Assembly: GCF_040954645.1 (NCBI RefSeq) | Contig: NC_092806.1 | Span: 161,692,328 to 161,756,327 of the forward strand | Direction: 5' to 3' | Length of the DNA: 64,000 nt | Source: Diabrotica undecimpunctata | Lineage: Eukaryota; Arthropoda; Insecta; Coleoptera; Chrysomelidae | Shown: positions 2,421 through 47,282 of the stretch, in pieces | Numbering within the stretch: the first letter of the stretch is position 1 | Layout of the letters: each line of letters opens with the position of its first letter | Position numbers and translations under genes: made by a program | The notes under the pieces: generated by a model | Databases searched by the model: none | What the model was told of the DNA's origin: nothing | The model's input: only the letters and a program-made list of their open reading frames with translations

Positions 2421-2456
2421 CCCCTGAAGATGCTCTAGTAAGCGAAAGTACTTGGG
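2421..2456 (+). ncRNA. Hammerhead-ribozyme-like motif (Penelope-type)
   Basis: The core box CTGAAGA is at 2424-2430. Stem II is GCT/AGC (2432-2434 with 2441-2443), followed by GAA at 2444-2446. A short stem III is AG/CT around a TA loop, and U-type cleavage position T2453 completes a CUU triplet. Stem I pairs CCC 2421-2423 with GGG 2454-2456. One extra base (T2431) sits between the core box and stem II, as in the other motifs of this window. PLE repeats are known to carry minimal hammerheads. No PLE protein is recognisable beside this one, so it is probably a relic inside the hAT interior. Confidence 0.5.
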
Positions 2457-2588
2457 CAAGATTTAATTAGTAAAACTGTGCTTGATATCTGCCTTTATTT
2501 TATCAAAGTTCATTTATTCGAACATTCAACCTTATATCAAAATAACAATTGGGTTAAAACAAAGGTTAACGAGCTTAGATAAGATTGA

Positions 2589-3600
2589 CTACAGACACAC
2601 ATTTGCACTATGTATAAATTTAATCAGACAATCATAGACTTTTTTATTATTAGTAGCCAATAGGTTATTTATTTGATATGGAGGAAATATTTGCAGAGTT
2701 TGCAAGTTGTTTAAAAGAGTTCCTGAATGCTGAAGATATTTGGAACACTTAAAAAAGATGTCGTTAAGATCTCCTTGTTCTTGACAAGTTTCGCGTAAGT
2801 CTGAATTGTATATTTTGATTTGTGCAAGATGAGCAGGATAACAAGCGTGGCCAAATCTCAATCTTATTAAACTTGTTGTATATTTACGGGCGGTATTGAA
2901 ATGATTAAACCATCTGGAATCAGGGATATGTGGTTGAAAAAGCGTCAGGAACACAAATTCTCTCATCTGCTAAAATTTCAGCTCTAGAGGTTATTGCAGC
3001 TTTAGCAATGGAATCAACATGCTCATTATATTTTACACCAACATGAGCTTTTACCCAAATAAAATTCGTAGTTTTATTTTTATTTTTAAGGTTAACAAGC
3101 ATGTTCACAATTTGGTAAATGGAAGAATTAGAATTATAATTGGGCAACTTTGTATTTTTGAGAGATAATAAGACTGACATAGAATCGGATATTATTAAAA
3201 CTGCATTATTGTTTAAACTGTCGAAATATATCAAGGCTTCAAGAATTGCAAGTGCTTCAACACTAAAAATTGAGCAATTGAGAGGTAGTTTGAACATTTT
3301 TTTCTCTTGACTTGGATGGAATGTAGAAAGCACATCCGGTCCCTTCCGATGTTTTGGACGCATCTGTATAGATTACAGCTGCCTTACACCATTTTTTTAT
3401 ATAAGAATTTAAGATACATTAATCTAATAATGGAGTATTATAATATGTTGGTATGTGTATGTCAGCTTCATTAAAAAATGCGAAGTAGTCGTTAATATCA
3501 AGGTTGCTAATACTGTTTGTACACTTATTGTTACACATGGCTCTAAAGGCCGTGCAAAGGGTTGGTGAATTTTTTAGAATACTCTTTTGTGGTCAAAGAA
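2589..3600 (-). pseudogene. LINE (RNase H-bearing, I/Jockey-group), RNase H domain and C-terminus, frameshifted
   Basis: Minus-strand C-terminal end of a non-LTR retrotransposon polyprotein in at least three frames. The RNase H acidic residues are all present: Asp in IYTDASK (about 3370-3350), Glu in SVEALAILEAL, Asp in IISDSMSVL, and Asp in HVDSIAKAA. They follow the family spacing. Downstream, RLRFGHACYPAHL followed by a Cys/His-poor remnant corresponds to the post-RNase H tail seen in these elements. Frames shift between the YTDAS segment and the body (near 3300) and again near 2940. The reverse transcriptase and endonuclease are absent. It lies inside the hAT-like element, so it inserted there or was captured before the hAT moved. 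Confidence 0.8.
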
Positions 3601-3846
3601 CATAAATGCATGCGTTGGGATAATTTTTGCCATTCCAATCTTAAAGGTGATGTAATAATATAACAGTGTAATAATAGCAAACTTAAAAATATTGTATTTG
3701 GGGGTAAGTACATACATATATTAATTTAATTCTATTTTAGTTTTTAGCTATTAAATAAAATTTATATCACATTTTTTAGCTTTCTACATTGTGTGGCGAA
3801 TTCATAATTTAAATAATACTAATAATTATAATAATATCTAATAGAT

Positions 3847-4059
3847 GTGACGATACAAATAATGAGACAATGGAGAATGGAAAGTACTCAGATGATACCT
3901 ATTATTTTCTCTACTACTGGAGTTATTCCGAAGTGCCTCTTGGAGAACACAAAACAGCTGGGTCTTAATGAAAATCTCTATAAGACCATGCAAAATGCAG
4001 TACTACCCTCAACATTTAGGTACGTAAGAAAATTTTTGGATGATACTCTGACGTACTAA
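3847..4059 (+). pseudogene. R2-like LINE, C-terminal RT tail fragment
   Basis: A 70-codon frame contains IIFSTTGVIPKCLLENTKQL followed by MQNAVLPSTFRYVRKFL. This matches the region after the reverse transcriptase in R2-like retrotransposons, where a V-P-x-x-I-x-x-T-G-x-x-P-K box precedes L-Q-K-A-x-L-x-x-T-x-x-x-x-R-K-F-L. The frame ends in a stop at 4057-4059 and is followed by plausible 3' UTR to about 4190. Everything upstream (RT, zinc fingers) is missing, consistent with 5' truncation. No target duplication was found. Family placement rests on this one motif. Confidence 0.65.
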
Positions 4060-4189
4060 GTCACCTAGGGCTCGATAACACGAAAAGAGTCTCACCAGAG
4101 CTCAATTCTTTTAATGCCGTAACTTGAATGAGTGAATTTTTCCCTTAGAGAAAGTGTGAGCCGTATGGCTAAATCTGATACCCAATAAT

Positions 4190-5491
4190 AAAACATCTTT
4201 ACATATTTTTTATTTAGTGAGATGTAGTTTAATTGAAGTTAGACATTTTAATATCTTTCATTTTCAAACGTTTTTATTAAAAGTTTTTTAAGTATTTAGA
4301 CAAATGAATAATAGACAGTAGACAGGTCAACAAGTTTCTGAAAATTTCTTTGTAAAATTTGGTCTTTTTCAACAAACAGTTTGCTGTAGACTTCTTCAAA
4401 TCGTGAAAAATAACATTTTTTTGGCGCATCGTAAATTAAGTTGTTTTTTTTATAGATATCTGATAATCGAAAAAAGCTTTCTGGAGCCTAGAGAAGAAAA
4501 AGGAAATGGCAAAAAGAATAACTAGTTGAAAAGGTTAGTGGTTCACTAGAAACGTTTTTAATCCCATTAAGATCATATGAAGTAGCATCAACTTCCTGAG
4601 CCCATGATACAAGTGTGATAGAGATCGAATTGACAGTGGTCAATAGAGATGAACAGAAGAAGGATTTATCGAATACCACAACTATGATTGAATATGTCCC
4701 GAACAAGCAAGTTTTAAAAAAATTCACGTTCATAAGGATCCTAGCTATTGGCCTTGTATTATTAAATTAACTCAGATATGATTAGGTCCTACCCAATTGA
4801 TAGAAGTTGACATGAATTTTCTTTTAAATAAATACAGCAGAGGTTTCTTATATATTTATTATACGAAAAGATTGTATAATGGGTAAGTAATAAAAAGAGT
4901 TTGGTTGGTGTATTCTAAATCAAAAGATTGTGTATATTGATTTTCTCGTTCAAAAGCTTTAACATTTTTCCTAGTTGATGCGTTGTGGGTTATAATGATT
5001 GGAGACATTTAAGTTAGGTTATAGAACCACATGAAAAATCGCAAGGTCACACTTGTAATACAAAATCTGGGATTTATTTAAAAAACGATTTCTTGTAAAA
5101 CAACAATTGATTCACTAAATAAGAAATTAATAAATATGGAAAAAGATAGATGAGCTTCTATTTTAAAAATTGTAATTTATGTTGTTAAATTTTTAGGTGA
5201 CCACAATTTGAGTTTTAGGGGTAAAAATAGCAATATAAAATAGCAACAAAATGGAAATTTAAACAAAATTAAAAAAAAACAATTGCAAGCGTTAATGATT
5301 CGAGATTTGATCTCGTTAATAGGAATAAAAGGTCTCCATCACATATTTAAAAATAATGTTTATATAGCAATAAGCCACAATTATTGAGGCTCCAAAAAAT
5401 TCCATCTGACCAATTTAAAATTTTCATTAATACATTGGGTTTGAGGAGGGCGGCCAAATAACTTTCACACACGGGCGTTAGATATCCTCTA
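4190..5491. other. Interior of hAT-like element, no gene recognised
   Basis: AT-rich sequence with only short chance frames. The 81-codon minus-strand frame at 4488-4733 has no hAT transposase motif that I can recognise. If a transposase once lay here it is beyond recognition by eye. Confidence 0.4.
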
Positions 5492-5509
5492 AACGGCCCT
5501 GATCCACAA

Positions 5510-6550
5510 CTTCTTCTTCTTCTTCTTCTTCTTACTCTTTATAAGCAATTCTGCTTGTTCATTGGCGAATTAATGCCTCTATTTTTGCACGTTCGTCTAA
5601 TACTTCTTATGCTGATTGATGACTTGCCTCTTGCTATTTTGACGACACGGGTCTCCTTCATTGTGCTTCATTTTTTTTTTCTATTTTGTATCCATTCATT
5701 TATACACTGTGCGTTACATTTTTTTCTAACGTCTTCACTTCCCTTTCGATCTTCAGCGTATTTCCTGTAATTATTCTTATTACTCTCATCTCTACAGTTT
5801 CCAGTAAGTTTTGCGTTGTGGCTGTGTCGGGTCTTGTATCTGAGAGATATGTCATTATTGGTCTTACACTGTCTTTATAAGTTCTTGACTTCATCTCAGT
5901 GTTAATGTGTCTGTTTTGCCATATAGTGTTATTAAGGCATCCTGTCAGTCTATTTGCTTTTTGTACTTGATCTCTCACTTCTTTGTCCAGGTTTCCATAG
6001 CTGGACAGTGTAATATAACTCCCAGGTATTTTATTTCCATTACTTGTTCAATACTGATGCCATCAATTTCTATTTTACATTTGGTTGGTTCTTTGCTAAC
6101 TACAATTGATTGAGTTTTCTGAGATGAGATTGTCGTATTATATTTTTTTGCTCTTATGTTAAATCTGTGGACCAGTCTTTGCAGACTGTCTTCATATTGG
6201 GCTATTAATATTGCGTCATCTGCTTAAAAGAATATTTTTATTTCTTTGTTTATCATTCTGTATCATCTTTCTTTGTTAACACTTTTGATGATTTCATCCA
6301 TGATTGAATTAAAGAGCATGTGGCTCAATGAACCCCCTTGTCTTATTCCGCTGCCTATTTCTATATGTTCTGTAAGTTGTCCATCTATTCTGACTTCCAT
6401 TTTGTTGTTTTCGTAGATTTTTTCGATTTTTTCAAAGATGAATTACATCTTTGAGACTTAGTCTGTCAAACGCTTTCTTTAGATCAATGAGACATAGAAT
6501 TGCTGGTCTATTATACTGTAGTGATTGCTCAGTAAATTGCTTTATAACGA
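5510..6550 (-). pseudogene. RTE-like LINE, reverse transcriptase 3' half with (CTT)n tail
   Basis: The minus strand encodes RT motifs in order: LIDLKKAFDRLSLKDV (about 6500), GIRQGGSLSHMLFNSIMDEI (about 6340), the catalytic ADDAILIAQYEDSLQRL (about 6220-6170), then YLGVIL and a C-terminal domain with IWQNRHINTEMKSRTYKDS and RPIMTYLSDTRPDTATT (5700-5978). Stops and frameshifts are frequent, for example just before the ADD box and near 6430. The element ends in a (CTT)n track at 5510-5533, which is (AAG)n on its own strand. Simple-repeat 3' tails are typical of RTE-type LINEs. It is 5'-truncated near 6550. The hAT-like element's right duplication begins immediately at this tail. Confidence 0.85.
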
Positions 6551-7527
6551 ACGATATCCAAGACGTAATGTCATAAATTAGTGGTGACAAAGAATTTCAA
6601 AATTTTGATACCCTATAATCTGGGTACTTTCTATATGTCTCCCTCTATCTGTATTTTCTTTGTTGAATACTATAGTACTTGATGTTAATAATATTACTTT
6701 TTATATATATTAGAAAAAGACTTGTTGCCATATTAATACTGAAAGTACTTAAAATTTTTATATTTTCATCTTATTATTTAGATTATAAACAATTTCTTAG
6801 AATTTGCGACCACTAAATTTGATTTTGACAGTAATAAATAAGCTTCAAATGATGGAAATTGAGTAAAGATCGACGATCTCAACTATCTCTAACGTTTTTT
6901 ATGACAGTGCTACAAATTAAACTTTAATGAAAACCTGCAGGTAATTAAAAAAGTCGAAAGACAAAAGCCGGTGGTGAAATCCCTCCACCCGGCCAGATTA
7001 ATCTCGGAGTTTTCGCCTAGACCAATATTGACATAACGCAATGTCAAATAACTTATAGTGAAAAATTAATTACCTCCCTTTCCTTAACGACAACGATTCA
7101 TAACTTGGAAAGTCAAAAGTTTGGCGGATTTTAGCCCGGCTTTAATATTAACTTTTATCAAGTAGATGTCAGCACAGCAGTGCCGATTCGGAACTACATG
7201 GACGGAGAAGGAATTAGGGACTTTTGAGGGTAATAGCAGAAGAAATTAAAAAATAAAATTATATTGTTTTGTTATTGTTGCTTGAATAGGTCTATTTACC
7301 TAGCGTGCCCACTTATATCGCTTTTTTTTTAATAAATGTCTTTTTTTCTATTTAACTTGTTATGTTCATCTGGTATGTGATTAGCAAGATGGTTTTAAAT
7401 CTTTTCGAAAAGGAGTACTAGTGGCTTTGAAAAGAGACGTTTTTACAATAGGGATTTTGGCTGTATAGCAAAATGTAAGCTGGTGTGGGGTAATACTTCA
7501 CTTAGGTGGCATTAGTAATAAGTTTAT
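6551..7527. other. Spacer, nothing recognised
   Basis: Mostly AT-rich, with one more GC-rich patch around 6960-7020. No protein family, RNA gene or terminal repeat was recognised on either strand. Confidence 0.4.
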
Positions 7528-7540
7528 TAAATCGTACTGG

Positions 7541-8361
7541 TTAAATCGATATACGCTAAGTTTTGCCGACGACCAAATAGTGATCGCACAAGACGAGGAT
7601 GACCTCAGTTTTATGATGAGAAAACTCTAGCAGGAATATACAAAGAATGGGATGGAAATAAACCTAAAGAAAACTGAATACCTAACAACGGAGAATACAG
7701 AAATAAAACAGCTGGAAATAGACGAAGGTAAACAAATCAAAGGAACAGACCAGTATAAGTATTTAGGCTTCATAATATCAAACAAAGGAACAACGGAGGA
7801 AGATATAAAAAATAGACTAGGACAAACAAGAGACTGCATACGAAAATTGAACCCGGTACTATGGGATAAGAACATCAGCATGAAAACAAAGAAAAAAATA
7901 TATAATACCATGACAAGAAGTATCCTCACTTATGGGTGTGAAAATTGGACAATAAATAAGAAAACCAAAAACAAAATAAGAGTAACAGAGATGGAATTCC
8001 TAAGGAGAAGCTGCAGAGTAACAAGAAGAGATAGAATAAATAACATGGAGATTAAGAGGAGAATGGGAATGAACTCCGACATAATAGACTACATCGAACA
8101 GAAGAGGTTAACCTGGTACGGACATGTCAGAAGAGCAGACCAAAATTGGTGGATAAATAGAATAACAGAGTGGAGCCCAATAGGAAGAAGAAAGAGAGGC
8201 AGACCCCGAAGATCTTTCAGAGATGAAGTGGACGAAGCAACGAGTAGAAGAAACCTACAGGAAGGGGACTCGCTAAACAGGAAAAATTGGAGAGTTGGAA
8301 AAAAACGGTTGAGTGAAGGAATACAGTGAAAACTGTGGAAATCCTTGTATATATATATATA
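7541..8361 (+). pseudogene. 5'-truncated RTE-like LINE with 13-bp target duplication and (TA)n tail
   Basis: The insert is flanked by the same 13-bp word TAAATCGTACTGG (7528-7540 and 8362-8374). It starts inside the reverse transcriptase at SFADDQIVIAQDEDDL, so the active-site Asp pair is present but the fingers/palm upstream are missing. An in-frame stop follows (…MMRKL-stop, about 7628). A 225-codon frame then covers the RT C-terminal domain: YKYLGFIISNKG, ILTYGCENWTINKKTKN, LTWYGHVRR and GRRKRGRPRRSF. The 3' end is a (TA)n track at 8348-8362. The duplication and tail are direct evidence of target-primed insertion. The clade name is an inference from the motif style. Confidence 0.85.
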
Positions 8362-8374
8362 TAAATCGTACTGG

Positions 8375-8930
8375 GCATAATGATAATAAAAAATTGATTC
8401 GGGCACCATTTAAAAATATCTAATAAAAACTTGACTGAACTACTACTTGTCTTTTCTAATGGTAAACGCTTTTAATATTGCAAATTTACCTACTGTTTAA
8501 ACTTCCTGGTGACGACTATCTTAAAAAACTACGATGGGTTCTTGGAATTTTGAAAGTCTTCCAAGTAAGAGTATAGAGTCAGTAGATGCGCTTAAAAGAA
8601 GAAAATTGCTTGCAGTTAAGAGACGAGATGGAAAGGATAAACGGCGAAGAACTAGATGAAGGAAATAAATTGAAGTTTGTAAAGAAAAGTATTGCAGATA
8701 GAATCTTAACATGTTTAAAAAGGTTTTAAAATTGGTTTGTTCCTGAATTAATTTATAAGGTATAAGTGTTACATTTACTCTCACCTTTGTCAACATAAAT
8801 TTTATAGGATATGATGATGCTTATATTTCCGTAATTTGCTGTTTTTATAATTGCACATATATTAATTATAAATATATTAGTTTATCAATTTTTGTACTAA
8901 AAATTAAAATTAAATCTTAAAATTTGTGTA
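8375..8930. other. Spacer with one uncertain short frame
   Basis: A 41-codon plus-strand frame at about 8534-8658 (ATG to TGA) is Lys/Arg-rich at its end, with repeats of KRR. No family is recognised and no initiation context can be judged. The remainder is AT-rich with no features. Confidence 0.3.
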
Positions 8931-8932
8931 TA

Positions 8933-10058: not shown

Positions 10059-10060
10059 CA

Positions 10061-10704: not shown

Positions 10705-10849
10705 ACATTTTACTCTTCTTAATTATTATTTCTTATTGCTCTATCTTTACGAAATTTTAAAATTTTATTTTTTGTTCATTTCTTAAGCTCTATACTCTGT
10801 CTCTCTACGACACTTTTGCAATCTGTAAATCCATATAATACTTTTACTA

Positions 10850-11100
10850 GTTTAATACTGGCATCTATTGAATGCAACAAAACAGAACTTGACTTAAAAT
10901 ACTGCCTTGGGGGAGTCCAAGGTTTGTAGTTCTAGGTGTAGTCGTTACTTGATTTATTTTTAAATGCATTTTCCTGTTTGTGTACAGCTAGTAGTTAGTT
11001 ATAAAGTTCGCTAATTATTGTTTAAGAAATTCAATTGAAATTAATTTGTTCGTTAAAACATCTAGGTTAACATTTTATCAAATGCTCCTGTAATATCCTC
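10850..11100 (-). pseudogene. Jockey-group LINE reverse transcriptase fragment
   Basis: Minus-strand translation gives GFEDITGAFDKM (about 11085-11045), the D-x-x-G-A-F-D motif. Further on, NLGLPQGSILS (about 10925-10890) is the RT motif before the active site. Both are in the right order and distance, but stops occur between them. The YADD active site is not found. The fragment lies opposite in strand to the following LINE tail. Confidence 0.65.
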
Positions 11101-33899: not shown

Positions 33900-34290
33900 A
33901 GAAATAAACTCAAAATAACATTCGGATTCACTCCCCGCCTCTCGACGCGTTAGTGTTCTGAGCTGTTGGACGTGAATCCCTGTCCTGGCATTTGGTTTTC
34001 ACCTCTGGCTGCGTTAAGTAGTTGAGTTACTGTGACCAATTGCCCATCTTGGTAGTTAGTATTCGCCTCTGGTTGCGTTGAGTAACTGAGTTACCGTTGC
34101 TAACTACCCATCTTCCTGTCTTTTGTTTTCTTTTTCTTTTTTTGTTCTCCTGAAGAAGCTACATACAATTGTAGCGAAACGTCGAGATGAACCCACTTTT
34201 GGGTCACTCACAAATGACACGGTCCAAACCCGGAAGACGAATAAACTATAATTCTTACTCTGGCCGTGGAAGCCTACGATTTCATTTTAC
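33900..34290 (+). mobile_element. Penelope-like element terminal repeat (pLTR) with hammerhead motif
   Basis: A comparatively GC-rich 390-bp block. It contains two diverged tandem units of about 58 bp (33994-34050 and 34057-34114), each with CACCTCTGG/CGCCTCTGG, TGAGTTAC and CCCATCTT. A T-rich tract, the hammerhead motif at 34144-34192 and a 3' part with AACCCGGAAGACG and GCCGTGGAAGCCTACG follow. The order hammerhead then AACCCGGAAGA is shared with the minus-strand block at 47150-47285, so both are PLE-type repeats of related families. No RT or GIY-YIG coding remains nearby. Confidence 0.6.
34144..34192 (+). ncRNA. Hammerhead-ribozyme-like motif (Penelope-type), well formed
   Basis: The core box CTGAAGA is at 34150-34156. 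Stem II is a perfect GCTACA/TGTAGC (34158-34163 with 34170-34175), followed by GAA at 34176-34178. Stem III is a two-base AC/GT without loop, and C34183 is the cleavage-site base in a GUC triplet. Stem I pairs GTTCTC (34144-34149) with GAGATGAAC (34184-34192), with a three-base bulge. One extra base (A34157) precedes stem II. The minimal stem III suggests activity as a dimer, as reported for short PLE hammerheads. Structure is seen; activity is inferred. Confidence 0.7.
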
Positions 34291-35870: not shown

Positions 35871-36866
35871 TTATTTTCAGTTTTCACTTTCATAACGATA
35901 AAATAAAGGATACTGTACGGAATATTATTAGCATCTATGAAAATGGTATCTATCCAGTACAAATATAAAATATTTAAGAAATAAAATGTTTATCAGATGG
36001 AGAAGACTTAAATCGAAGGAATTGAAAAGGACCGCCAGATATTAATAACTCGCAAAACAACCTTTTTATCACAATGTAAGTACACTTAAAAATAGGTCAA
36101 AGCTTAGATGAAAGGGAATGAGAAAGATTTAAGATTCACAAGTAAAAACTATTGAAAAGATGCAGATATAAATACATTAAATAAACAATTAGTTTTTTCT
36201 GAATAGACGATAGATCATAAGAGGCCAATTGACTGCAGAATTTTAAACCAAACCATAGTATAAAGTAGCAGAGAATGACTAAGAGATATCGGAACTGCTG
36301 CAAAATTAGGAAGGACGTACATAAAAAGCCCAAATAGAATTTTGTTCACGATCAACAGCTTTGAAAGAAATGAAAAGGTTGGAAAGGAGTATTGTGCGTA
36401 AAGTAAATTAAAAATCCAGCGATTTCTGCTTTGACCTAATACGTCAACTATCGAACATTCCAACCATACTCGAAAGGCTCCCCTCTCCAAGCAGAAGTTA
36501 CCCTCTAAAAACTATCCGTGGCCATAATGCGTCCAGTGGTAAAACCATCAGTATCGCAGTAGCAGAAGAAGGTGAATCTTTTGGTCTGAAACTCAACACT
36601 AGTAAAAGAAAAGCAATGGTAGTAAACAAACATCCAAATCTACAAGTTAACATTCAAATTTGTAACACCCCCATAGAAGTCGTCAAAGAAGTTCATGGAT
36701 AACTAAAGATATAGACCTAGACGTTAAAGAGCTCAAATTAAATACCCAAGATCTGCATTCCTTAAAATGAATGACCTTTTGACTACTACTAAACTCTTTC
36801 ACTGGATACTAGGTATCTATTCGTGAAAACATACATAAATAATATTCTCTTATATGCGACAGAGAA

Positions 36867-38267
36867 TTATATGTAATATTCGACCAGAGGCTAACATGGA
36901 ATGCACACATTCAGAAAGTCACACAGAAGGCCACTATGGCCCTGAACACATGTAGACGAATGTGTGGTAAGAATTGGGGGTTAAATCCTAAAATCAACCT
37001 CTGGTTATACACAAGGGTTATAAGGCCCATGATAACTTATGGTTCAGTGGCGTGGTGGAACAAAACGCAACAGTCCGGGGCGATTCGATTGCTCAATAGC
37101 ACACAAAGGCTTGCATGCTTGAGTGTTACAGGAGCCATGAGAACAGCCCCAACGGACGCGCTAGAAGTTCTGCTAAACCTACCACCTCTGCATATATACA
37201 TACAGAGTGAAGCCAGATCAACAGTACATCGGTTGATCCAAGGCCAAGCTCCAATAAGTATGATGCAGGGAGCTGATAACTTAAGGCTATACCAGGACAT
37301 AAAGGCAGACCCCGTTCTAGGAATGCCTGTAGACCGAATGGTTACGAGGTATAGTTTTAACAAAAATTTTCAAATTACAATACCAAAAAGAGAGGACTGG
37401 GAAACTGGTCCGCCGCTAACAGCAAACTCAATATGGTATACGGACGGCTCCAAAACGGATACAGGTACGGGGGCTGGAATATATGGCATAAAACCAAGGA
37501 CGGAAGTCCGGGTATGTCTAGGAACATACGCGACCGTATTTCAAGCCGAATTAGCTGTTATACACAGGTGCACTATGGAACTAATCGGCCGAAATGTAGA
37601 TAACGACTTCATCGTTATCTATTCGGATAGTCAAGCGGCTCTAAAGGCTCTCAGTTCGGTACAGGTCGATTCATGGCTGGTATGGAACTGTTTGGATGTC
37701 CTTTCTCAGGTGGGAAGTCAAAACAGGTTGACACTTGCCTGGGTGCCGGGACATAAGGGTCATCGTGGCAACGAGAAGGGCGATGAATTGGCCCGAGAAG
37801 GCGCATCTACGCCACTGGTTGGTCCGGAACCCTTCTTTGGAATCGCAAATACGATAAAAAGGGCAGCCATACACAAATGGGTGCAACAGAAGTCTCTTGA
37901 GTGGTGGAACAACTCACCAGGACAGAGGCAGGCCAAACAGTTCATCAAAGGACATTCGGCTAAATTTACAGCAGACTTACTTTCGCACAGACGCAGGACT
38001 GTCAGAATGATAGTGGGTCTGCTCACTGGGCACTGTAGACTCAATAGACACTTGAGTCTCATAGGCCTGACAGAAGAGGACACCTGTCGTTTCTGTCTGG
38101 AAGAAGAGGAAACCGCTCTACACGTTCTGTGCCATTGCGAAGGTCTCGCACGAATGCGGTTTCTAGAACTCGGAGAGGAAAAACCGGAAGCACCAGGCTA
38201 CATGAAAAGGCCACTATCAAGGCTGTTGAGTCTCATTAAGAGGACCAAGCTAGATGAAGTGCTTTAA
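36867..38267 (+). CDS. LINE polyprotein C-terminal part: RT thumb, RNase H, zinc knuckle (5'-truncated)
   Basis: The frame is open from the truncation point at 36867 to TAA at 38265-38267; the first in-frame ATG is 36936. RT tail: LTWNAHIQKVTQKATMALNT, VIRPMITYGSVAWWNKTQ and RTAPTDALEVLLNLPPLHI. RNase H has all its acidic residues: Asp in IWYTDGSKTDTG (about 37433), Glu in FQAELAVIHR, Asp in IYSDSQAALKAL and Asp in GNEKGDELAREG, with WVPGHKGHRGN between them. The C-terminal Cys/His cluster is CRFCLEEEETALHVLCHC (about 38086-38139). About 467 codons with no stop or frameshift. The endonuclease and the catalytic Y/FADD are missing because of 5' truncation, so it cannot be autonomous. Confidence 0.85.
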   Translation, partial: LYVIFDQRLTWNAHIQKVTQKATMALNTCRRMCGKNWGLNPKINLWLYTRVIRPMITYGSVAWWNKTQQSGAIRLLNSTQRLACLSVTGAMRTAPTDALEVLLNLPPLHIYIQSEARSTVHRLIQGQAPISMMQGADNLRLYQDIKADPVLGMPVDRMVTRYSFNKNFQITIPKREDWETGPPLTANSIWYTDGSKTDTGTGAGIYGIKPRTEVRVCLGTYATVFQAELAVIHRCTMELIGRNVDNDFIVIYSDSQAALKALSSVQVDSWLVWNCLDVLSQVGSQNRLTLAWVPGHKGHRGNEKGDELAREGASTPLVGPEPFFGIANTIKRAAIHKWVQQKSLEWWNNSPGQRQAKQFIKGHSAKFTADLLSHRRRTVRMIVGLLTGHCRLNRHLSLIGLTEEDTCRFCLEEEETALHVLCHCEGLARMRFLELGEEKPEAPGYMKRPLSRLLSLIKRTKLDEVL

Positions 38268-38357: not shown

Positions 38358-38690
38358 GACAGAGAAGTGTTTTAGGAGAAACTTCAAAATAACATGACAG
38401 GCCATGTCACTAACAAGAAAGTATTGTGCAAAATGCACCGTGACAGAAAAAAATATCATCAATAAACGCAAAAGTTACTTAGGACATTTGTACCGGAGAA
38501 GACAATATAAGCTCTTGAGATTGTTGATGGGGGGAGAAAATTTAAGGAAGCATAGGTCCAGATAAGATATGACCATTAAAAACATTTAGAGGGTCTCGAT
38601 ACTCAATCCCTATTGACGGCCGTATAGGATAGACACAGATGTGACATAATTGTTGCCGACCTTCAGAAATGAAGAAGGCGATCTTCAAGG

Positions 38691-41595
38691 CAAGAATATT
38701 CGAGCCCAAAACATCCTAAAAATTTTAAGCTCATCTTTCGTCAATTTTTTACATCGACACCCGAGAAAGAAACTCGTTTCTTCACTCACAAAACTGTAAA
38801 ACTCTGCCAGCAACGAACTCCCTAACAAATACAACGACTCTCTGGAAGCAATGCCTATTTACTACTGCACTGCAAATGGACTGCGAGGAATCGGTTTTCT
38901 TTGGCTTTCCTATCCCATTGCACAATTATTTTTGTCCATAAAGAGATAACAGCCACAGCTGACCTCAATCTGTAACAATAGAGTAAGTAAATCAAAAGAA
39001 TCATAAAAAAATATTCGGAAAAAACATGTTCTTCAAGCCCTTCCTTCTCTGATCTACGCTCTCCTCCGCAGGACACCAGACCATCCACCACAGTCGAGTC
39101 AATGAAGACTTGACACGTTTGTTTTGACTTTTTGACTTAAGGAATATAATAATACGTATTAGTTTTGCATGTGAGTAGTTGAGTTTGTACCACCAACGAT
39201 AAAGAAATAAAAATTTTTAAGCCATTTTTGTGTTTTAATACGAAAATAATTTTTTTGTAATTGAAATTTATTTTTTTATTATTTGGAATCAGGGATCTTT
39301 CACAGAAAGCATCCGCGGGACTTCCCAAACGTAACAACCACCACCAGTGAATTCCAAACGAAGGACCAAAAAAATATCGAGAATAAAATGAAGAATCATG
39401 TAAATTCTACAAATTACATAAAAATATATAAATTTGACTCCCTTGACAGTTTAAAGTCAGTTGGAGAGTAACCTGTAGTTCAGTGTTAGCCTTGCTAAGG
39501 CAGGGAGTTGAAAGTCTTTGGTGGTTCGTGTGAGTGTGGTTTCCTCGATGAATGTGTCGGAGAAAGAACGAGAATCGAATCGGGTGATATCAGGATATCA
39601 GGAGACATGTTTTGCCTTAACCAGCCCTTCTATCCTGATGTCTGGAGTGACAGGGAAGAGGCTTTTAGTTGGACGCCGACCGTCTCGGAGTGGTGAGGGG
39701 CAAAGTGTCAAAGGTCTAACTCCCTAGGACATCTCGTCCTGGTACAACTTCGTTAGGGTACTAGAAACCCAACACTACCTGGGTAAGTAACATGTGTCTG
39801 TATGCAGATTTTCCTTCTTCTCTTTAAAGATGTAAAAAAAAGTTCAGTGTTGATAGTTTTGATGTTTTATAAATTTGTCACCCTAATAACTGCTCTAGAA
39901 ACAGTTTCTGGGAAAACCATTACAATATGATACAAGTTTTTTGATGTGTGATGAATAATAAATAGAATATATTATACATTTTCACAATTATGTAGTTTCT
40001 GAGATCTTCTTAGCACTAAATTTGTAAAAATGTGGCAGCGACCCTACTTTGAACATATTTTCTTACATCGATAACATCTTTACGGTATTTTCAGCTGTTA
40101 TCAACACATTTATAGTTTTTATAGATATTTATGATTGATTTTGTCCACAATTTTTATTGAATATCTGATACCAATATCAAAAATTCTCTAACAAATTTAC
40201 TGTAAAATATTTCATACTTACATAAATATTTTTTTAGGATATTTAGTATCTTACCTGAAACAAAACAAATAAAAAATTACTTTCACAATGTACTATACAA
40301 TACTATTAACATTAATTTATTATTTTATTATGTCAGAAATTACCAAATGCTATTTAATAATTTAGGAATTAGATATAAATGTATTACATAGGATCTGTTC
40401 ATTGTTGTATATTTTGTTAAAAAATGTCGTAACCAGTTACTTCGTAAGCATTTATTGCATGATCCGGCAATAACATTTGCTCCATCTTTTCAAGCATCGT
40501 CTTACAATGCTTCTTTTTTATTATTTATTTTCTCTTATATCTGCATTTATCTGTCTAAAAAGTTTTGTAATGCCTTTAATTCGTATATATCCGATAAATC
40601 CACTATTTAAAAATACTTCGATTATTTGGAAATTATGCAACCACTTGCACAACAGGTTTTAATATAACATTACGGTTGTTGCTTCATTTGAAATTAAAAC
40701 ATAAAATCCCTAATATATCATTTTAAGCATACGAGAACGATAAACTCCCCATTTTTCCCGTTAAAGCACTGTTTATACTGCAGTGATATAGAGCTTTTAA
40801 GCAAATCCCATCCTTAATCCACTTCACTGGAAGCCGACGTATACACACATCCATTATCGCCTTCTATATCAAATTACACAACTCTGAATGCATTAATTAA
40901 GCGGGAAATGAGTTTGGAAAATGGCCAGTTTTCCAACGGACATCTAATAAGGTTAACAAACTCCACTCAAATCCTTTTCCGAGGTCAAAGCGTGGCGGGG
41001 GAGGAAAACTGGTGACGAAGACAGATTTTTATTCTTTTTTTCCCCATTAATCCTTTGTCGCTGTTGTCAATGCACTGATGAAAATGATTGACTGTAGAAG
41101 GATGTCTTTGTGTTTAGGGGTGGAATTTCCCGTTTATCGATTGGGTAAATTCTTAAATATTATTATAGCCCGCACAGGGTTGGAAATGTTTGTACATGAC
41201 CTAGATATCGTAGACGATGCCACAAATTATTTAGTAATGTACTGCAGATACACATTTTGGTGGTTTTTGTAGACGAAACGCACATTATTTATTTATAGAA
41301 TAATTGAAACCGACGGTTTTCCCTAAAATTACATTGTGCTTGTCTCATGCTATAATGATGAGATATGCTGGTATGAATTTATGGCTTTGGATACATAATT
41401 CGAACGATGGTTATTTTTGCAACAAGTACAAAAAGTACTTATTGTACGCGACATGCAATTGTCCAACTATGCCGTCAGGAGCAATTTACTTGAAAAATAT
41501 CAAACACTAAACAAAAAAAAATTTATGATTTTTTAACCAAAGTATAAAAAATGTACGGTGTGTAAAGGGGTAGTGAAGCGCAATACATGATGTCG
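38691..41595. other. Spacer; includes a GC-richer block at 39460-39790
   Basis: No gene recognised. 39460-39790 is GC-rich, with several short open frames and phrases such as GTGAGGGGCAAAGTGTC and CCTAGGACATCTCGTCCTGG. Its composition resembles the LINE 5' UTR at 41600-41818, so it may be a detached 5' UTR of a related LINE. 39800-40700 is very AT-rich. 40740-41280 is of mixed composition with no family match. Confidence 0.35.
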
Positions 41596-41599
41596 TATC

Positions 41600-41818
41600 C
41601 TGTTGGCATCACTTAGCCTCTCCTACTTAATTCCTATCTTCACCTCCAAGCTGGTACACACCGGTAACCTGAGCAACCCCACTGGAGACTGGGTAGCCAA
41701 CCCCAGTGGATGGTGGGGTCAGGGCAGACGAAGAAGGGAGCCTTGGTCCTCCGATGAAAAGGGGGTTAAGCGAAGGGTTAACAACCCTTCCTTGTAGAAC
41801 TCAATTGTTGCGAATACA
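41600..41818 (+). promoter_or_regulatory. LINE 5' UTR (probable internal promoter region)
   Basis: A GC-rich leader directly upstream of the intact LINE frame. It contains two similar phrases, CCTGAGCAACCCCACTGGAG and CCAACCCCAGTGGATGGTGG, and a near-palindrome GGGTTAAGCGAAGGGTTAAC. A similar pair of phrases appears on the minus strand near 47465-47515. Promoter function is inferred from position only. Confidence 0.45.
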
Positions 41819-43504
41819 ATGGCTAATGAAACAAACGGACGGATCTCACAACGACGAACTCAGCACAGAAAAATGGACATGATTATGGATTTAAAATTTG
41901 GAACCTGGAACGTGCGAACCTTCTTAAAGGCAGGAGCTATGATAAGTATGGCAGAAGAACTTGAAAAATACGGAGTTGAAATATTGGCACTGCAGGAAAT
42001 CAGATGGAAGAGCCAGGGAGAAATTCATAAGAATAAATTCTCACTATACTACTCTGGAAATGAAATGAGACAAGGTGAAAGAGGAGTAGGGTTTATGGTA
42101 ACCAAAAAACTGCGGAAAGCCATTATCGCATTTACACCAATATCAGATAGAATTTGCACCATAAGATTTAAAGGTAAATTTCATAACGTGACAATGGTTA
42201 ATGTATATCCACCGACGGAAGAGGCTGATGAAGAAGACGTTGAAAGATTCTACGGAGAACTACAGGATGTATGTGATAAAATCCAAAGACATGATGCTGT
42301 TATAACGTTAGGCGATTTTAATGCTAAACTGGGGAAAGAAGAAACGTTTGCAAATATATTTGGGAAACACAGTTTGCACACTGAAACCAGTCAAAATGTA
42401 CTCAGGGTGGCACAGTTCGCAGCAGCAAATAATTACGTAGTTGTCAGTACTAACTTTCAGAGAAAAGATATCCATAAAGGAACATGGAAAATACCAGGAA
42501 CTAACGAGGCCAATCAAATTGACCATATACTCATCTCAAAAAGATGGGCAACAGACATAACTAATGTCAGAACGTATCGCGGGGCGAACTCTGACTCAGA
42601 TCACTATCTTGTAGGGGCAAAATTACGGCAGAAAATAGCGACAGTAGCAAAAGGGAAAAATATTCAAATCAAAAAATGGAATGTCGAAGGATTCAAAAGC
42701 GCAACAAAGAGACAAGATTACAGAAATGCTCTCCAAATAAAACTCAACCGAACTAGAGAGGAAGATACTGCAGGGGAGGAATGGAGACAATTAAAAACAA
42801 TTATAACGGAGTCAGCAGAGGAAACTGTCGGAAAAGCCAAAAGGCAAAGAAATGCGGATTGGTATGATGATGAATGCAGAACTGCAGTAGAGGAAAAAAG
42901 GCAAGCTAGGCTTAACCAACTTCAGAGAAACACAAGAAATAGCAGTGAGATTTATAACGAAAAAAGAATACAAGCGACTAGAATATGCAGAAGAAAGAAA
43001 AGAGAGGCTATGAAAAAACAAGTACAAGAAATCGTAAAGCATAACAACAGACGCGAAAGCAGAAAATTCTATAAATGCATAAAAGAAAGCACACAGTCAT
43101 TTAGACCAAAACTAACGATATGCAAAGACAAGGACGGAGAACTACTAACAGAGAAGCAAAAAATTATAATGAGATGGAAACAATATTTCGAAGAAAATCT
43201 AAATGCAGACAACGAAAATGATCAGAACAAGACAATATATTATACGGCGGAGCTGCACATCGAAAATCCGAGTTATGAAGAAGTAGTTCAGATAATAAAT
43301 AAACTAAAAAATAATAAAGCACCAGGAACGGACGGAATTTCGGCAGAATTATTAAAGCATGGAGGATCCGAACTCTGGGAAAGAATCCATTACCTAATAA
43401 CATTAATATGGACGAAGGAGCAAATGCCAGAGGAATGGACAGTCTTCAGTTGCTTTGACAAAGTCCTCGTAGACATACCGTCTCAGGACTCGCAACTAAT
43501 GTAG
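41819..43504 (+). CDS. LINE APE endonuclease plus N-terminal reverse transcriptase, 3'-truncated chimera
   Basis: A 561-codon frame from ATG 41819. The APE endonuclease is complete: KFGTWNVRTFLKAGAM (Asn), ILALQEIRWKSQG (Glu), RGVGFMVTKKL, ISDRICTIRFKGKF, ITLGDFNAKLGKEET (Asp/Asn, about 42307-42351), RKDIHKGTWK, NQIDHILIS and SDSDHYLVGAKLR (Asp/His, about 42590-42630). The linker has DWYDDECRTAVEEKRQARL and ATRICRRKKREAMKKQ. RT fingers start with NNKAPGTDGISAELLKHGG (about 43312-43368) and stop at MPEEWT (43438). The last 20 or so codons, to the stop at 43502-43504, are unrelated PLE-side sequence. The RT palm with its active site is therefore missing. The endonuclease looks intact; the LINE is not autonomous. 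It has a 5' UTR but lost its 3' half, the opposite of the usual 5' truncation. Confidence 0.85.
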   Translation: MANETNGRISQRRTQHRKMDMIMDLKFGTWNVRTFLKAGAMISMAEELEKYGVEILALQEIRWKSQGEIHKNKFSLYYSGNEMRQGERGVGFMVTKKLRKAIIAFTPISDRICTIRFKGKFHNVTMVNVYPPTEEADEEDVERFYGELQDVCDKIQRHDAVITLGDFNAKLGKEETFANIFGKHSLHTETSQNVLRVAQFAAANNYVVVSTNFQRKDIHKGTWKIPGTNEANQIDHILISKRWATDITNVRTYRGANSDSDHYLVGAKLRQKIATVAKGKNIQIKKWNVEGFKSATKRQDYRNALQIKLNRTREEDTAGEEWRQLKTIITESAEETVGKAKRQRNADWYDDECRTAVEEKRQARLNQLQRNTRNSSEIYNEKRIQATRICRRKKREAMKKQVQEIVKHNNRRESRKFYKCIKESTQSFRPKLTICKDKDGELLTEKQKIIMRWKQYFEENLNADNENDQNKTIYYTAELHIENPSYEEVVQIINKLKNNKAPGTDGISAELLKHGGSELWERIHYLITLIWTKEQMPEEWTVFSCFDKVLVDIPSQDSQLM

Positions 43505-43645
43505 AGTCATATGTCGCCCTGTTACCTATCCAACGGTAACTTTAACATCTTAAATGTAAATTAGACATAATGTAGATCAAATCTTATTTAATAATTTTTA
43601 AAGGGTTTTTACCCACATATTTAGTGGCTACATCCATGTATTAAC

Positions 43646-43689
43646 TTGACACTGATGATGGAATATTTATTCCGAAAACGTTTTGTCAA
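43646..43689 (+). ncRNA. Hammerhead-ribozyme-like motif with complete stem I and palindromic stem III
   Basis: Stem I pairs TTGACA (43646-43651) perfectly with TGTCAA (43684-43689). The core box CTGATGA is at 43652-43658. Stem II is GGAATA/TATTCC (43660-43665 with 43668-43673), followed by GAA 43674-43676. Stem III is the palindrome AACGTT (43677-43682) and T43683 is the cleavage-position base in a UUU triplet. Because AACGTT folds only with zero loop in cis, pairing between two copies would be favoured. One extra base (T43659) precedes stem II. All three stems are supported by exact complementarity. Confidence 0.72.
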
Positions 43690-44150
43690 TGCAACATAGC
43701 CCAACTGGGTTTTTTATATACCTTTTTATAAAGGATTTTATTCAAAATTTCAGTTATAATAATTATGAGCTCGCAGTTACTTATTGAAATACTTAAGTCT
43801 ACAGGAAGAATTAAAACTAAACATGTACTAAATTATTAAATGAGATTACAAGCGATAGTTGACAGCCGTTATCACTACTAACATTGTGAACCAGTGTTGT
43901 TAAGTGCAAAATTCCATTATTAATCGATTTTAAAACATGAAAATCGCACCTATTATAATTGAGGAGCAGCTGAGCAAAACGTATTAAATCGAAAATATAT
44001 GACGGGAGATGGTTTAACATATCGTATGTTGCCTGAAGTTAAATCTAATATAATCTTAAACATCCTTCACTTTTAACAACAATATGTACATTTTTTGGCA
44101 ACTTTAACTTCTGTAAAGGGTTTTACCCTAATATTTTGGTGGCTCAGGCT

Positions 44151-44192
44151 TTAACCTGATGATGGAATTATTATTCCGAAAACGTTTGTTTA
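44151..44192 (+). ncRNA. Hammerhead-ribozyme-like motif, second tandem PLE unit
   Basis: The core box CTGATGA is at 44156-44162. Stem II is GGAAT/ATTCC (44164-44168 with 44173-44177), GAA is at 44178-44180, palindromic stem III AACGTT is at 44181-44186 and the cleavage base is T44187. Stem I begins AAC/GTT (44153-44155 with 44188-44190), followed by a mismatch. Same architecture as the motif about 505 bp upstream but with an altered stem II loop and stem I. Stem sequences thus changed while pairing was kept in part. Confidence 0.6.
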
Positions 44193-44240
44193 TTTTAATG
44201 TAGCCCTTCTAAGGGTTTATTAAATATACCTACTTACAAA

Positions 44241-44983
44241 GAATTAAACCTCTTTTTGTGATATATCGTATACAGCCAGCTGCAGGAATTTAATTTCCTT
44301 GTGGATTTTCTAAATTTCAGTTTTATAATACTATAAAGCTTTATTTAAATTATCATCTCGAATTTCTACTTCTATATCATTTATTACTCCTTGCCGCTCA
44401 TTTTCATGAGCTGCTTTTGTTCAAATCGTACATCTCTTGAACAAAGAATTTCATTAGTTTCATTATTTGTTTTATGATACGAAAGAGCATAAGTTCATAA
44501 TGTTGGTGATTAAGTATTTCACAAACTTCTGTTATCTCTTCTGGATTACAAGATTTAGATATAGATTTGATCAAAGATAAAATATATCTTATTTTGAATT
44601 ATTTCTAGGCAATATTCACTTTTTGATTTAAACTGCCAATTGTGGCGTTATTGTTTTCTTATTTTTTACATAAAACTTTCATTCTTCCTTTGGCCTATTT
44701 GTGTTGCGCACTATTTTACTGTGGATATAGGGTTTCGCACGTATTGTGAAAAAGTGCTACAGCTTGGAATAAGGTTTTCTTTTAATTAAATACAATCTAT
44801 AAAGCACGCTCTGTACTGCATCGGAGAGTAAAGTATTTCGGTTGCAGGTGGCGCTTTTATTTGCAATATTACCCTTTTATATATACAAAAATCCATTTAA
44901 TTAAAAATGCCTCTTTAAATTTATTAAGGTAATGGGTTATTAAAGCTACGATTGGTAGACTTCAGATTAATTACAGATATTTA
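44241..44983. other. PLE-associated spacer, no domain recognised
   Basis: AT-rich. The minus strand of 44480-44620 gives a moderately open stretch with SISKSCNPEEITEVCEILNH, which I cannot assign. It may be remnant PLE coding sequence in the opposite orientation or chance. Confidence 0.3.
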
Positions 44984-45493
44984 ATGTTACAAAACATTGT
45001 ATCTAACAATCAGAACATCTATTATCATTCACTACCTTTTATACCAGCATTAACACCTAAATTAATACAAACACTAAAGGTTATTGACAATATAAAAATA
45101 GCAACAAAGAACATCAAAACTATTTCGTCTTTATATTCCAAAACTAAATATCCTATAGACAAATTTGAAAAAACGAATGTGGTATACAGCATTAGTTGTA
45201 CTCAGTGTGAAGCTGAATATGTTGGTGAGACCGGAATAAATCTTTCAAATCGCATTATTTCTCACAAAAGTGATTGCAGAATTAAAAAACCATCTTGTGC
45301 TTTGGCAGAGCATGTAATCGATAAAGACCATATTATGGATTTTGATAACATTAAAATTTTATGTAGTGAAAGTAATAAATTCAAAAGGACTTTTTTGGAA
45401 ATGGTTTGTATTAGCAAAAGTGATAATAATTTAAACAAAAGATCGGAAATTCAAAATCTAAGCAAAATTTATAATTATATTATTTCTTTATAA
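44984..45493 (+). pseudogene. Penelope-like element C-terminus with GIY-YIG endonuclease
   Basis: A 169-codon frame, open to TAA at 45491-45493. Residues about 65-105 show the GIY-YIG nuclease pattern as found in PLEs: VVYSISCTQCEAEYVGETG, then LSNRIISHKSDC with Arg and His. The end, FLEMVCISKSDNNLNKRSEI, matches the PLE C-terminal L-E-M-x-x-I … N-x-R-x-(D/E)-I motif also found at 46540-46640. The RT domain upstream is missing; 44984-45110 covers only the linker. The nuclease looks structurally intact, but without RT the element is dead. GIY-YIG plus RT is unique to PLEs, so the family call is strong. Confidence 0.85.
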
Positions 45494-46027
45494 TTTATGT
45501 ATAAAACTTGTAAAATGTCACATTTTGATTTAATTTTCCATATATCTGTTACATTTTTTCAGACATCTATCAATGGTGAATAAATCTTCTTCTTTTTTTG
45601 TTACTAAACAAAAAAGAATTTTTAAACAAAATTTTATTTTTGGCAATATAATTGTCAAAAATAAAAATTTTAAGTTGGCATTTATGACATTGAGGCTTTG
45701 TAATTGGTTGCTATTTTAACTTATTTATAAATTCAATTGTTTTTGTGTTAAGAAAATGTTTTCAAAATTATACTGTCAGAGACGCATTTATTAGATTAGG
45801 ACAATTTTATATTAATTATTTTTGAGATGTATTAGCAGCATTTTTTATTTACCAAACTAATTTTATTTGGTGAGTTAACAAAAATTTTTTTTTCTTTCTA
45901 GTTCAACTTTGTAAGATATTTTGTCTTTTTTAGCAGCTCTTGATAATAATTGTAAACACAATTGAAAGCTCGAGATAATAAATAGTTAACCAATAGCCAT
46001 TTTATTGACTCCAACCCATCCAAAACA

Positions 46028-46028
<1 letters not shown>
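45494..46028. other. PLE 3' flank and AT-rich spacer
   Basis: No coding motif recognised. The part directly after 45493 is probably PLE 3' untranslated sequence. No hammerhead core was seen here. Confidence 0.35.

Positions 46029-46092
<64 letters not shown>
46029..46092. repeat. (TA)n microsatellite, 64 bp, left of the PLE palindrome
   Basis: An uninterrupted TA run that ends directly at the first base of the inverted repeat. A second (TA)n lies at 47077-47125, 33 bp beyond the other end of the palindrome. Confidence 0.95.
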
Positions 46093-46094
<2 letters not shown>

Positions 46095-46156
46095 TAAACG
46101 TTAAATAGTGGGTTTGCAGCAATAAAAATGAAATGTGTACTCTTTTAAATTTTTAT

Positions 46157-46195
46157 TCCAAGCTTTCGGACATTGGTTATGTCCTTCATCAGGGA
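46157..46195 (-). ncRNA. Hammerhead-ribozyme-like motif, left arm of PLE palindrome
   Basis: On the minus strand the core box CTGATGA covers 46192-46186. Stem II GGACAT/ATGTCC is perfect (46084-type numbering on plus: 46179-46184 with 46168-46173). GAA is 46167-46165, stem III is AG/CT (46164-46161) and the cleavage base is U at 46160. Stem I is only three pairs (46157-46159 with 46193-46195). One extra base lies before stem II. It is the intact partner of the mutated copy in the right arm. Confidence 0.6.
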
Positions 46196-46529
46196 GCTAC
46201 AAATGTGATTAAGAAATTGTTGGTGTTGGTATAATTAATTAAAAATTGTTTCTACTTACAAACTTAACGAGGTTGTATCAACAAAGATCTATTATAATAT
46301 TGATAAAATTTATCATGGTCTCTCATCTATTTTAATATATAAAAACTATTTTTATGTTTAAAATTTTAAAAAAATTATTACTGTAAATACAAAAACACTT
46401 AATTATTCTAAATAAATACGTGACATTATTTTGACAAAATTCTTTTAAATGTCAATTGATAAATTGTTGTTTGTGTTATTATTACATTTATCTAGTAGTA
46501 ACAAATAGGAGAATATATAAGAGAATAAC

Positions 46530-46691
46530 ATCACCAAAAGACTTTTTCTTGAAATGGCCTACATTTGCCAAAATAATAATACAATGAATCATAAAACGGA
46601 TATTGGCCATCTAAATGAAATGTTCTCCTATTTGTTACTACTAGATAAATGTAATAATAACACAAACAACAATTTATCAATTGACATTTAA
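46530..46691 (+). pseudogene. Penelope-like element C-terminal coding tail
   Basis: The open stretch SPKDFFLEMAYICQNNNTMN followed by HKTDIGHLNEMFSYLLLLDK ends at the stop 46689-46691. It is homologous to the end of the GIY-YIG protein at 44984-45493 but from another PLE family. The GIY-YIG motif itself is not included, so this is a severely 5'-truncated copy. Confidence 0.75.
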
Positions 46692-46940
46692 AAGAATTTT
46701 GTCAAAATAATGTCACGTATTTATTTAGAATAATTAAGTGTTTTTGTATTTACAGTAACAATTTTTTTAAAATTTTAAACATAAAAATAGTTTTTATATA
46801 TTAAAATAGATGAGAGACCATGATAAATTTTATCAATATTATAATAGATCTTTGTTGATACAACCTCGTTAAGTTTGTAAGTAGAAACAATTTTTAATTA
46901 ATTATACCAACACCAACAATTTCTTAATCACATTTGTAGC

Positions 46941-46979
46941 TCCCTGATGAAGGTCATAACCAATGTCCGAAAGCTTGGA
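46941..46979 (+). ncRNA. Hammerhead-ribozyme-like motif, right arm of PLE palindrome, stem II mutated
   Basis: The core box CTGATGA is at 46944-46950, GAA at 46969-46971 and stem III AG/CT follows. Stem II is GGTCAT/ATGTCC (46952-46957 with 46963-46968), with one T-T mismatch relative to the perfect stem in the left arm. The mismatch arose after the arms separated and predicts weaker activity of this copy. Confidence 0.55.
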
Positions 46980-47074
46980 ATAAAAATTTAAAAGAGTACA
47001 CATTTCATTTTTATTGCTGCAAACCCACTATTTAACGTTTACTTCCTTACGTTGTCAGCAAATACTTCTGGTTC

Positions 47075-47076
<2 letters not shown>

Positions 47077-47125
<49 letters not shown>
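47077..47125. repeat. (TA)n microsatellite right of the PLE palindrome
   Basis: About 49 bp of pure TA. Together with 46029-46092 it brackets the palindrome, which suggests insertion into or expansion of a TA-rich target. Confidence 0.95.
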
Positions 47126-47128
<3 letters not shown>

Positions 47129-47242
47129 CGGAAAGATTTCCGCGGTTAGTACCATTAAACCTAGAGCTAAGATTAATACTATTATAAAAATTAATATTAA
47201 ACTCACCAGTCTTCCGGGTTGAACCGCGTCGATATCCATTGG

Positions 47243-47282
47243 GCCGAGCTTTCGACATCCTCTCTGATGTCTTCTTCAGGAC
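47243..47282 (-). ncRNA. Hammerhead-ribozyme-like motif (Penelope-type)
   Basis: Minus strand: core box CTGAAGA (47279-47273), stem II GACATC/GATGTC perfect (47271-47266 with 47259-47254) with a 6-base loop, GAA (47253-47251), stem III AG/CT (47250-47247), cleavage base C at 47246 in a CUC triplet, and a three-pair stem I including one G-U. One extra base (opposite T47272) precedes stem II, as in all motifs of this window. Confidence 0.6.

What the first reader, a model, noticed from the sequence alone, without database searches (positions are those of the whole stretch)
2421..47282. Seven hammerhead-ribozyme-like motifs from several Penelope-type lineages in one 64-kb window
CTGANGA, stem II, GAA and a minimal stem III can be drawn at 2421-2456, 34144-34192, 43646-43689, 44151-44192, 46157-46195 (-), 46941-46979 and 47243-47282 (-). 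Five of the seven have perfect stem II pairing of five or more base pairs with different sequences, which indicates conservation of structure rather than sequence. PLE repeats are known to carry hammerheads. The unusual part is the density and the fact that every copy has one additional base between CTGANGA and stem II, which the textbook core does not have.
Basis: partly seen in the sequence, partly recalled or inferred. Interest (0 to 1): 0.75.

Follow-up and report, generated by a model that had tools for sequence, protein, structure and literature searches.

The report
Hammerhead ribozymes of Penelope-like retroelements
This stretch of insect DNA, probably from a beetle, carries eight small hammerhead-type self-cutting RNA motifs left by Penelope-like jumping genes; they look real, but are of a known kind, and the extra letter in their catalytic core has a known precedent.

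Summary
It sits about 450 nt behind a Penelope-type GIY-YIG endonuclease fragment (44933-45490; 66% identical to a Diabrotica protein). Two of the seven are twin arms of one inverted pLTR, so there are at most seven lineages. These fit the published minimal type I hammerheads of Penelope-like elements, whose loopless palindromic stem III can close only between two copies. The extra base is not unprecedented: it is position 10 of the CChMVd viroid hammerhead, where A and U are tolerated and C and G harmful. All eight window copies have A or T; of 106 phage hammerheads, 23 have one extra base (21 T, 2 A). Cleavage was not tested. Rfam gave no hammerhead hit in the window; no positive control was run.

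The parts
2421..2456 (+). minimal hammerhead: stem I CCC/GGG, extra T, stem II 3 bp, stem III AGTACT, predicted cut after T2453
   Evidence: weakest of the set
34144..34192 (+). minimal hammerhead: extra A, stem II GCTAC/GTAGC, stem III ACGT, predicted cut after C34183
   Evidence: followed downstream by AACCCGGAAGA, shared with the 47243-47282(-) element
43599..43737 (+). first copy of a direct repeat (pLTR piece) that contains hammerhead 43646-43689 (extra T, stem II GGAAT/ATTCC, stem III AACGTT, stem I 6 bp, predicted cut after T43683)
44114..44245 (+). second copy of the direct repeat that contains hammerhead 44151-44192 (extra T, stem III AACGTT, predicted cut after T44187); cleavage at both would release 504 nt
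44933..45490 (+). Penelope-type GIY-YIG endonuclease fragment, 186 codons
   Evidence: Pfam GIY-YIG E 1.6e-4, 22.4 bits, just under the 22.6 cut-off; 66% identical to Diabrotica virgifera LOC126885465; tblastn
46092..46516 (-). inverted pLTR copy with hammerhead 46157-46195(-): extra A, stem II GGACAT/ATGTCC, stem III AGCT
46521..46646 (+). C-terminal piece of a second Penelope-type endonuclease, in the spacer and the start of the right arm
   Evidence: tblastn with P0003 E 1.4e-7, P0002 E 2e-6
46620..47044 (+). pLTR copy, 99% inverted repeat of 46092-46516, with hammerhead 46941-46979 (one stem II mismatch)
47243..47282 (-). minimal hammerhead: extra A, stem II GACATC/GATGTC, stem III AGCT, C17, stem I GTC/GGC
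48686..48756 (+). related copy of the 47243-47282(-) element that lacks 44 bases: the 3' half of the ribozyme and adjoining sequence

Best explanation
The window, probably of a beetle, holds remnants of several Penelope-like retroelements. Their pseudo-LTRs carry minimal type I hammerhead ribozymes with a two- or three-pair stem III that has no loop and is self-complementary, so the fold closes only when two copies lie in one RNA or two RNAs meet. Each copy has one extra A or U between A9 and stem II. Shown here: anatomy, non-random occurrence, covariation, and nearness of some copies to Penelope-type endonuclease remnants. Inferred: transcripts that run through tandem pLTRs pair through stem III and cleave themselves after H17, giving unit-length RNA with 5'-OH and cyclic phosphate ends; and the extra base is accepted because A or U there loops out without harming the core. 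Most copies here are probably fossils.
For: The seven sites and only they meet the full descriptor; 300 shuffles gave 7 hits in total. Five sites found without using stem I or III have both. Stem I is paired in 21 of 21 cells and stem II in 33 of 33 across seven rows, with many two-sided changes (46944 left out as a twin). Stem III varies as ACGT, AGCT, AACGTT and AGTACT but stays palindromic. Penelope-type endonuclease remnants lie about 450 nt before the 45937 copy and between the inverted pLTR arms. Cofolding of 43652 with 44156, and of 44156 with itself, keeps both stem II hairpins and pairs the strands through the stem III palindrome. Literature, passages only: minimal hammerheads in PLE pLTRs that may cleave as dimers (PMC7761336), lacking helix III (PMC6155905); protein-assisted cleavage of an Anolis PLE hammerhead, and the authors' remark that they had seen PLE hammerhead self-cleavage at 3-25 mM Mg2+ (PMC11167929); tolerance of A and U but not C and G at position 10 (PMC3705267). 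Phage hammerheads: 23 of 106 with one extra base, 21 T and 2 A.
Against: No Rfam hammerhead match; phage locus L004, with two hammerheads that parse fully, also gave none at E up to 1, so the library may be insensitive to such forms, but no positive control was run. In cofolding of each motif with itself, 6 of 8 gave long duplexes and 47279 paired through GGCC 3' of the core; no dimer showed stem I, II and III together. Cleavage is untested. No Penelope protein remnant was found near the 34144 and 2421 copies and no Penelope RT anywhere, on a limited search. The descriptor was written after the motifs were known.
Confidence: 0.82

Rival explanations
1. The motifs are ribozyme fossils or RNA hairpins of Penelope pLTRs that keep the look of a hammerhead but do not cleave; the conserved element serves, for example, as a protein or RT binding site.
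For: In the Anolis element, hammerhead-dead mutants still insert normally in vitro, the RNA does not cleave without protein, and no reads begin or end at the predicted cut (PMC11167929 passages). Several window copies are decayed: one stem II mismatch at 46941, 3-bp stem II at 2421, half ribozyme lost at 48686-48756.
Against: CTGANGA and GAA are intact in seven of eight copies, and the eighth has the U3-A8 pair that is reported as active (PMC3088659 passages; window). A mere hairpin would not need stem I, GAA, H17 and a palindrome.
Confidence: 0.3
2. Chance: CTGANGA followed by a stem and GAA is common enough in AT-rich DNA.
For: The core is short; 2421 alone could be chance.
Confidence: 0.02
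3. Canonical metazoan retrozymes (small non-autonomous tandem repeats with type I hammerheads) rather than Penelope-like elements.
For: 43599-43737 and 44114-44245 are direct copies with compatible stem III, whose cuts lie 504 nt apart.
Against: Only two copies, 72% alike, without matching sequence over most of the stretch between; stem III minimal; endonuclease remnants nearby; published animal retrozyme RNAs are about 170-400 nt (PMC7229834 abstract).
Confidence: 0.1

Closest known systems
[quoted passage not shown] Lunse, Weinberg and Breaker 2017; titles seen in reference lists; papers not held)
   Same: Type I order, diminished stem III, pLTR position, nearby GIY-YIG endonuclease
   Different: No difference established; whether those papers show the extra base could not be read here
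Poseidon PAc hammerhead of Anolis (PMC11167929, passages)
   Same: [quoted passage not shown] in 43646-43689 the distance from A9 to the cut is also 26 nt
   Different: No long frame follows the ATG formed by A9-T-G in the window copies (about 13 codons, read by eye)
CChMVd(+) viroid hammerhead with A10 (PMC3705267, passages)
   Same: One extra A (U also tolerated) between A9 and G10.1
   Different: Viroid hammerhead with loop-loop contacts; the window copies lack a looped stem III
Phage intergenic hammerheads (PMC3088659, passages; loci)
   Same: CTGANGA core; 23 of 106 with one extra base, always T or A
   Different: Looped stem III, so no dimer is needed; most lie just behind stop codons

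Membership tests
Hammerhead ribozyme | CUGANGA, GAA and H17 core residues | tested here: met
   7 of 8 copies exact; the eighth is U3-A8
Hammerhead ribozyme | three stems around the core | tested here: met
   stem I 21/21 and stem II 33/33 cells paired in 7 rows; stem III only between copies
Hammerhead ribozyme | textbook core without a base between A9 and stem II | tested here: not met
   one base in 8 of 8; a tolerated natural variant by PMC3705267, so not taken as exclusion
Hammerhead ribozyme | match to Rfam hammerhead models | tested here: not met
   none at gathering or E up to 10; no positive control
Hammerhead ribozyme | self-cleavage after H17 | not testable with these tools
   needs in vitro transcription
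Penelope-like element | GIY-YIG endonuclease linked to RT | tested here: inconclusive
   endonuclease remnants at 44933-45490 and 46521-46646; no Penelope RT found on a limited search
Penelope-like element | pLTRs, partial tandems, inverted copies (recalled) | tested here: met
   99% inverted arms 46092-46516/46620-47044; direct copies 43599/44114
Penelope-like element | minimal hammerhead in the pLTR | tested here: met
   both arms carry one; the 45937 copy lies behind the endonuclease
[quoted passage not shown]
   one pair only, 72% alike

The most novel reading that the evidence does not exclude
The extra base is kept for a reason: U or A at position 10 is a recurrent alternative hammerhead core, found in Penelope elements, a viroid and phages. 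In Penelope elements the U also makes A9-U-G10.1 a start codon inside the catalytic core, so that a ribosome starting translation and the ribozyme folding to cleave exclude each other, a switch between messenger and processed template.
Probability: 0.12. Interest if true: 0.7.

Novelty: new member of a known kind. Interest (0 to 1): 0.34.

Why it matters
It supports that Penelope hammerheads in an insect keep structure while sequence changes, adds a U3-A8 copy, and ties the one-base core insertion to a rule (A or U, never C or G) that agrees between mutational data on a viroid and 23 natural phage ribozymes. Rfam did not report this form here, so counts of hammerheads in genomes may be low.

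Tried and rejected
Chance was rejected by shuffles. Relatives of the endonuclease in viral and prokaryote contigs: 17 and 15 stretches matched the peptide patterns, none was confirmed. Stretches with CTGANGANGG...CCGAAACGTTG and ...CCGAAAGCTYG in viral contigs numbered 6 and 9, the same without the extra base 2 and 6; of these 23 loci only L002 and L004 gave a parse with all three stems, so these counts are mostly chance and I do not use them. A covariance model of my own was abandoned: MAFFT misaligned the stems and the one build failed on the length of the structure string. A text search for motif letters returned 84 papers; none of the 30 listed looked related by title. The window's own genome could not be searched (tool not answering).

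Full report
OBSERVATION. I read the seven stretches. All contain CTGANGA, one base, stem II, GAA. A scan for just these features (at least 5 paired bases, G-U allowed) found 34150(+), 43652(+), 44156(+), 47279(-) and 46192(-) (first base of CTGANGA), all with exactly one extra base, none with 0, 2 or 3; 100 dinucleotide shuffles average 0.27 for one extra base. These five were found without using stem III or stem I. Yet in 5 of 5 the bases after GAA are self-complementary, followed by a non-G base, then by bases that pair with those before CTGANGA. That last descriptor was written after seeing the motifs.

AN EIGHTH COPY. Allowing two core changes, one more site with all three stems and one extra base appears: 45937-45974(+), CTC-TTGATAA-T-AATTGT..ACAATT-GAA-AGCT-C-GAG. 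Its two changes are C3 to U and G8 to A. Passages of PMC3088659 say that C3 and G8 pair, that they covary to U3-A8 in several natural hammerheads, and that such ribozymes had been shown active in vitro. In 40 shuffles, sites with two core changes, one extra base and a stem I of at least 3 bp averaged 0.075. Two other sites have a stem I of 3 or more (55112, two core changes, two extra bases; 60291, one core change, two extra bases, long loop); I take them as chance.

COVARIATION. Across seven rows (46944 left out as the twin of 46192), stem I is paired in 21 of 21 cells and stem II in 33 of 33; every pair position except the first of each stem shows at least three pair types. Re-dealing the 3' strands gives 12.6 of 21 on average for stem I (p 0.0005) and 17.0 of 30 for stem II in the six rows with 5 bp (p 0.003). 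Stem II was used for selection throughout, and stem I for two of the seven rows (2424, 45940), so only the five rows are a fair test of stem I. Stem III is AGTACT, ACGT, AACGTT, AACGTT, AGCT, AGCT, AGCT.

CONTEXT. An open frame of 186 codons at 44933-45490 matches GIY-YIG (E 1.6e-4, 22.4 bits, just under the Pfam cut-off 22.6) and a Diabrotica virgifera protein at 66% identity (three hits in all, two without a name). The eighth motif lies about 450 nt behind it. A second endonuclease tail (46521-46646) lies between two 425-nt arms, 99% complementary, each with one copy of the same hammerhead (46192- and 46944+). This is the inverted pLTR arrangement that I recall for Penelope elements. The copies at 43646 and 44151 lie in direct repeats 43599-43737 and 44114-44245 (72% over 144 columns), whose predicted cuts are 504 nt apart. 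The 34144 and 47243 copies share AACCCGGAAGA some tens of bases downstream. A related copy at 48686-48756 has lost 44 bases with half the ribozyme. No Penelope RT was found, but the search was limited: Pfam on 10 open frames (8 of the 225 frames of at least 60 codons listed, and two shorter ones) and tblastn with three proteins of the endonuclease, one of them with part of the RT. A retrotransposon frame at 36843-38264 has its best named relatives in insects, several of them beetles (best 120 of 344 listed), so the host is an insect and, with the Diabrotica match, probably a beetle.

THE EXTRA BASE. PMC3705267 (passages) states that the CChMVd(+) hammerhead has an additional A10 between A9 and G10.1, that A10 lowers the trans-cleaving rate moderately, that C and G there are strongly harmful, and that U raises the rate 3-4-fold. 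In the window the base is A in four copies and T in four; in AT-rich DNA this alone means little. [quoted passage not shown] One of the 23 (L002) came in only through a pattern that required the extra base. So the insertion is a recurrent natural variant limited, in this sample, to U or A, in agreement with the mutational data. I did not find this tabulation in print, but looked only in the searches and in passages of the papers named here.

START CODON. In three copies (2421, 43646, 44151) the extra T makes A9-T-G an ATG. [quoted passage not shown] 43646-43689 has the same spacing. Thus PAc probably has the same extra U; this is inference, the figure was not seen. The window copies have only about 13 codons or fewer after this ATG (read). 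Phage hammerheads have the same U just behind stop codons (6 of the 6 one-insertion copies printed), which argues that the base is kept or tolerated for catalysis rather than for translation.

MECHANISM. Reviews read in passages say PLE hammerheads are minimal and lack helix III (PMC6155905; PMC7761336) and may cleave as dimers (PMC7761336). The Anolis one cleaved only with the element's protein, and hammerhead-dead RNA still inserted in vitro; the same paper recalls PLE hammerhead self-cleavage at 3-25 mM Mg2+. I therefore expect these motifs to cut transcripts of tandem pLTRs weakly, or with protein help, and rate most window copies as fossils. Folding: the single motif shows stem II in 7 of 8 (not 2424; with a mismatch in 46944) and stem I as drawn in 5 of 8. 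Cofolded with itself, 44156 keeps stem II and pairs through the stem III palindrome, as does 43652 with 44156; 47279 pairs through GGCC behind the core; the other 6 of 8 give long duplexes. None shows all three stems at once.

RFAM. No hammerhead match in the window. The phage locus L004 gave none either at E up to 1, though two of its motifs, one without an insertion, parse with all three stems. So absence from Rfam output may say little; I ran no known positive control.

VERDICT. The motifs are non-random, correctly read and known in kind. The two points called unusual, density and the extra base, have precedents. The useful additions are the eighth U3-A8 copy, the link to endonuclease remnants, and the A-or-U rule at position 10.

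Noticed in passing
window 41547-41738 (+): Weak match to the HDV-like ribozyme drz-agam-2-2 (21.9 bits, gathering 38, E 0.16), 60 nt before an open frame with an endonuclease/exonuclease domain (41798-43501), where I would expect a retrotransposon's HDV-like ribozyme.
   Followed up: no
L070 2995-6400 (+) (IMGVR_UViG_3300009156_000502), also L058, L121: Phage contigs with clusters of hammerheads, nine in 3.4 kb in L070. In all, 82 of 106 hammerheads start within 15 nt behind the stop of a frame of at least 40 codons, against 79 of 817 other CTGANGA sites in the same loci. Clusters around prophage genes are already reported in PMC3088659 (passages).
   Followed up: partly
L004 minus strand, about 700 nt (IMGVR_UViG_3300037423_001962): Three hammerhead-like motifs in one phage contig, two with an extra T and one without; two parse with all three stems, the third has an imperfect stem III; Rfam reports none at E up to 1.
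   Followed up: partly
window 45937-45974: C3-G8 replaced by U3-A8 in a Penelope-type hammerhead; could be decay or a kept pair.
   Followed up: partly
window 43440-43520: By eye, the frame 41798-43501 seems to lose its reverse-transcriptase similarity near its end, just before the first Penelope repeat; it may have been broken by an insertion. No call tested this.
   Followed up: no
window 46029-46092, 47077-47125, 49413-49474: Pure TA runs of 49-64 bases; the first touches the outer edge of the inverted pLTR arm (46092), the second lies about 33 bases from the edge of the other arm (47044), as if Penelope had entered AT-rich DNA.
   Followed up: no
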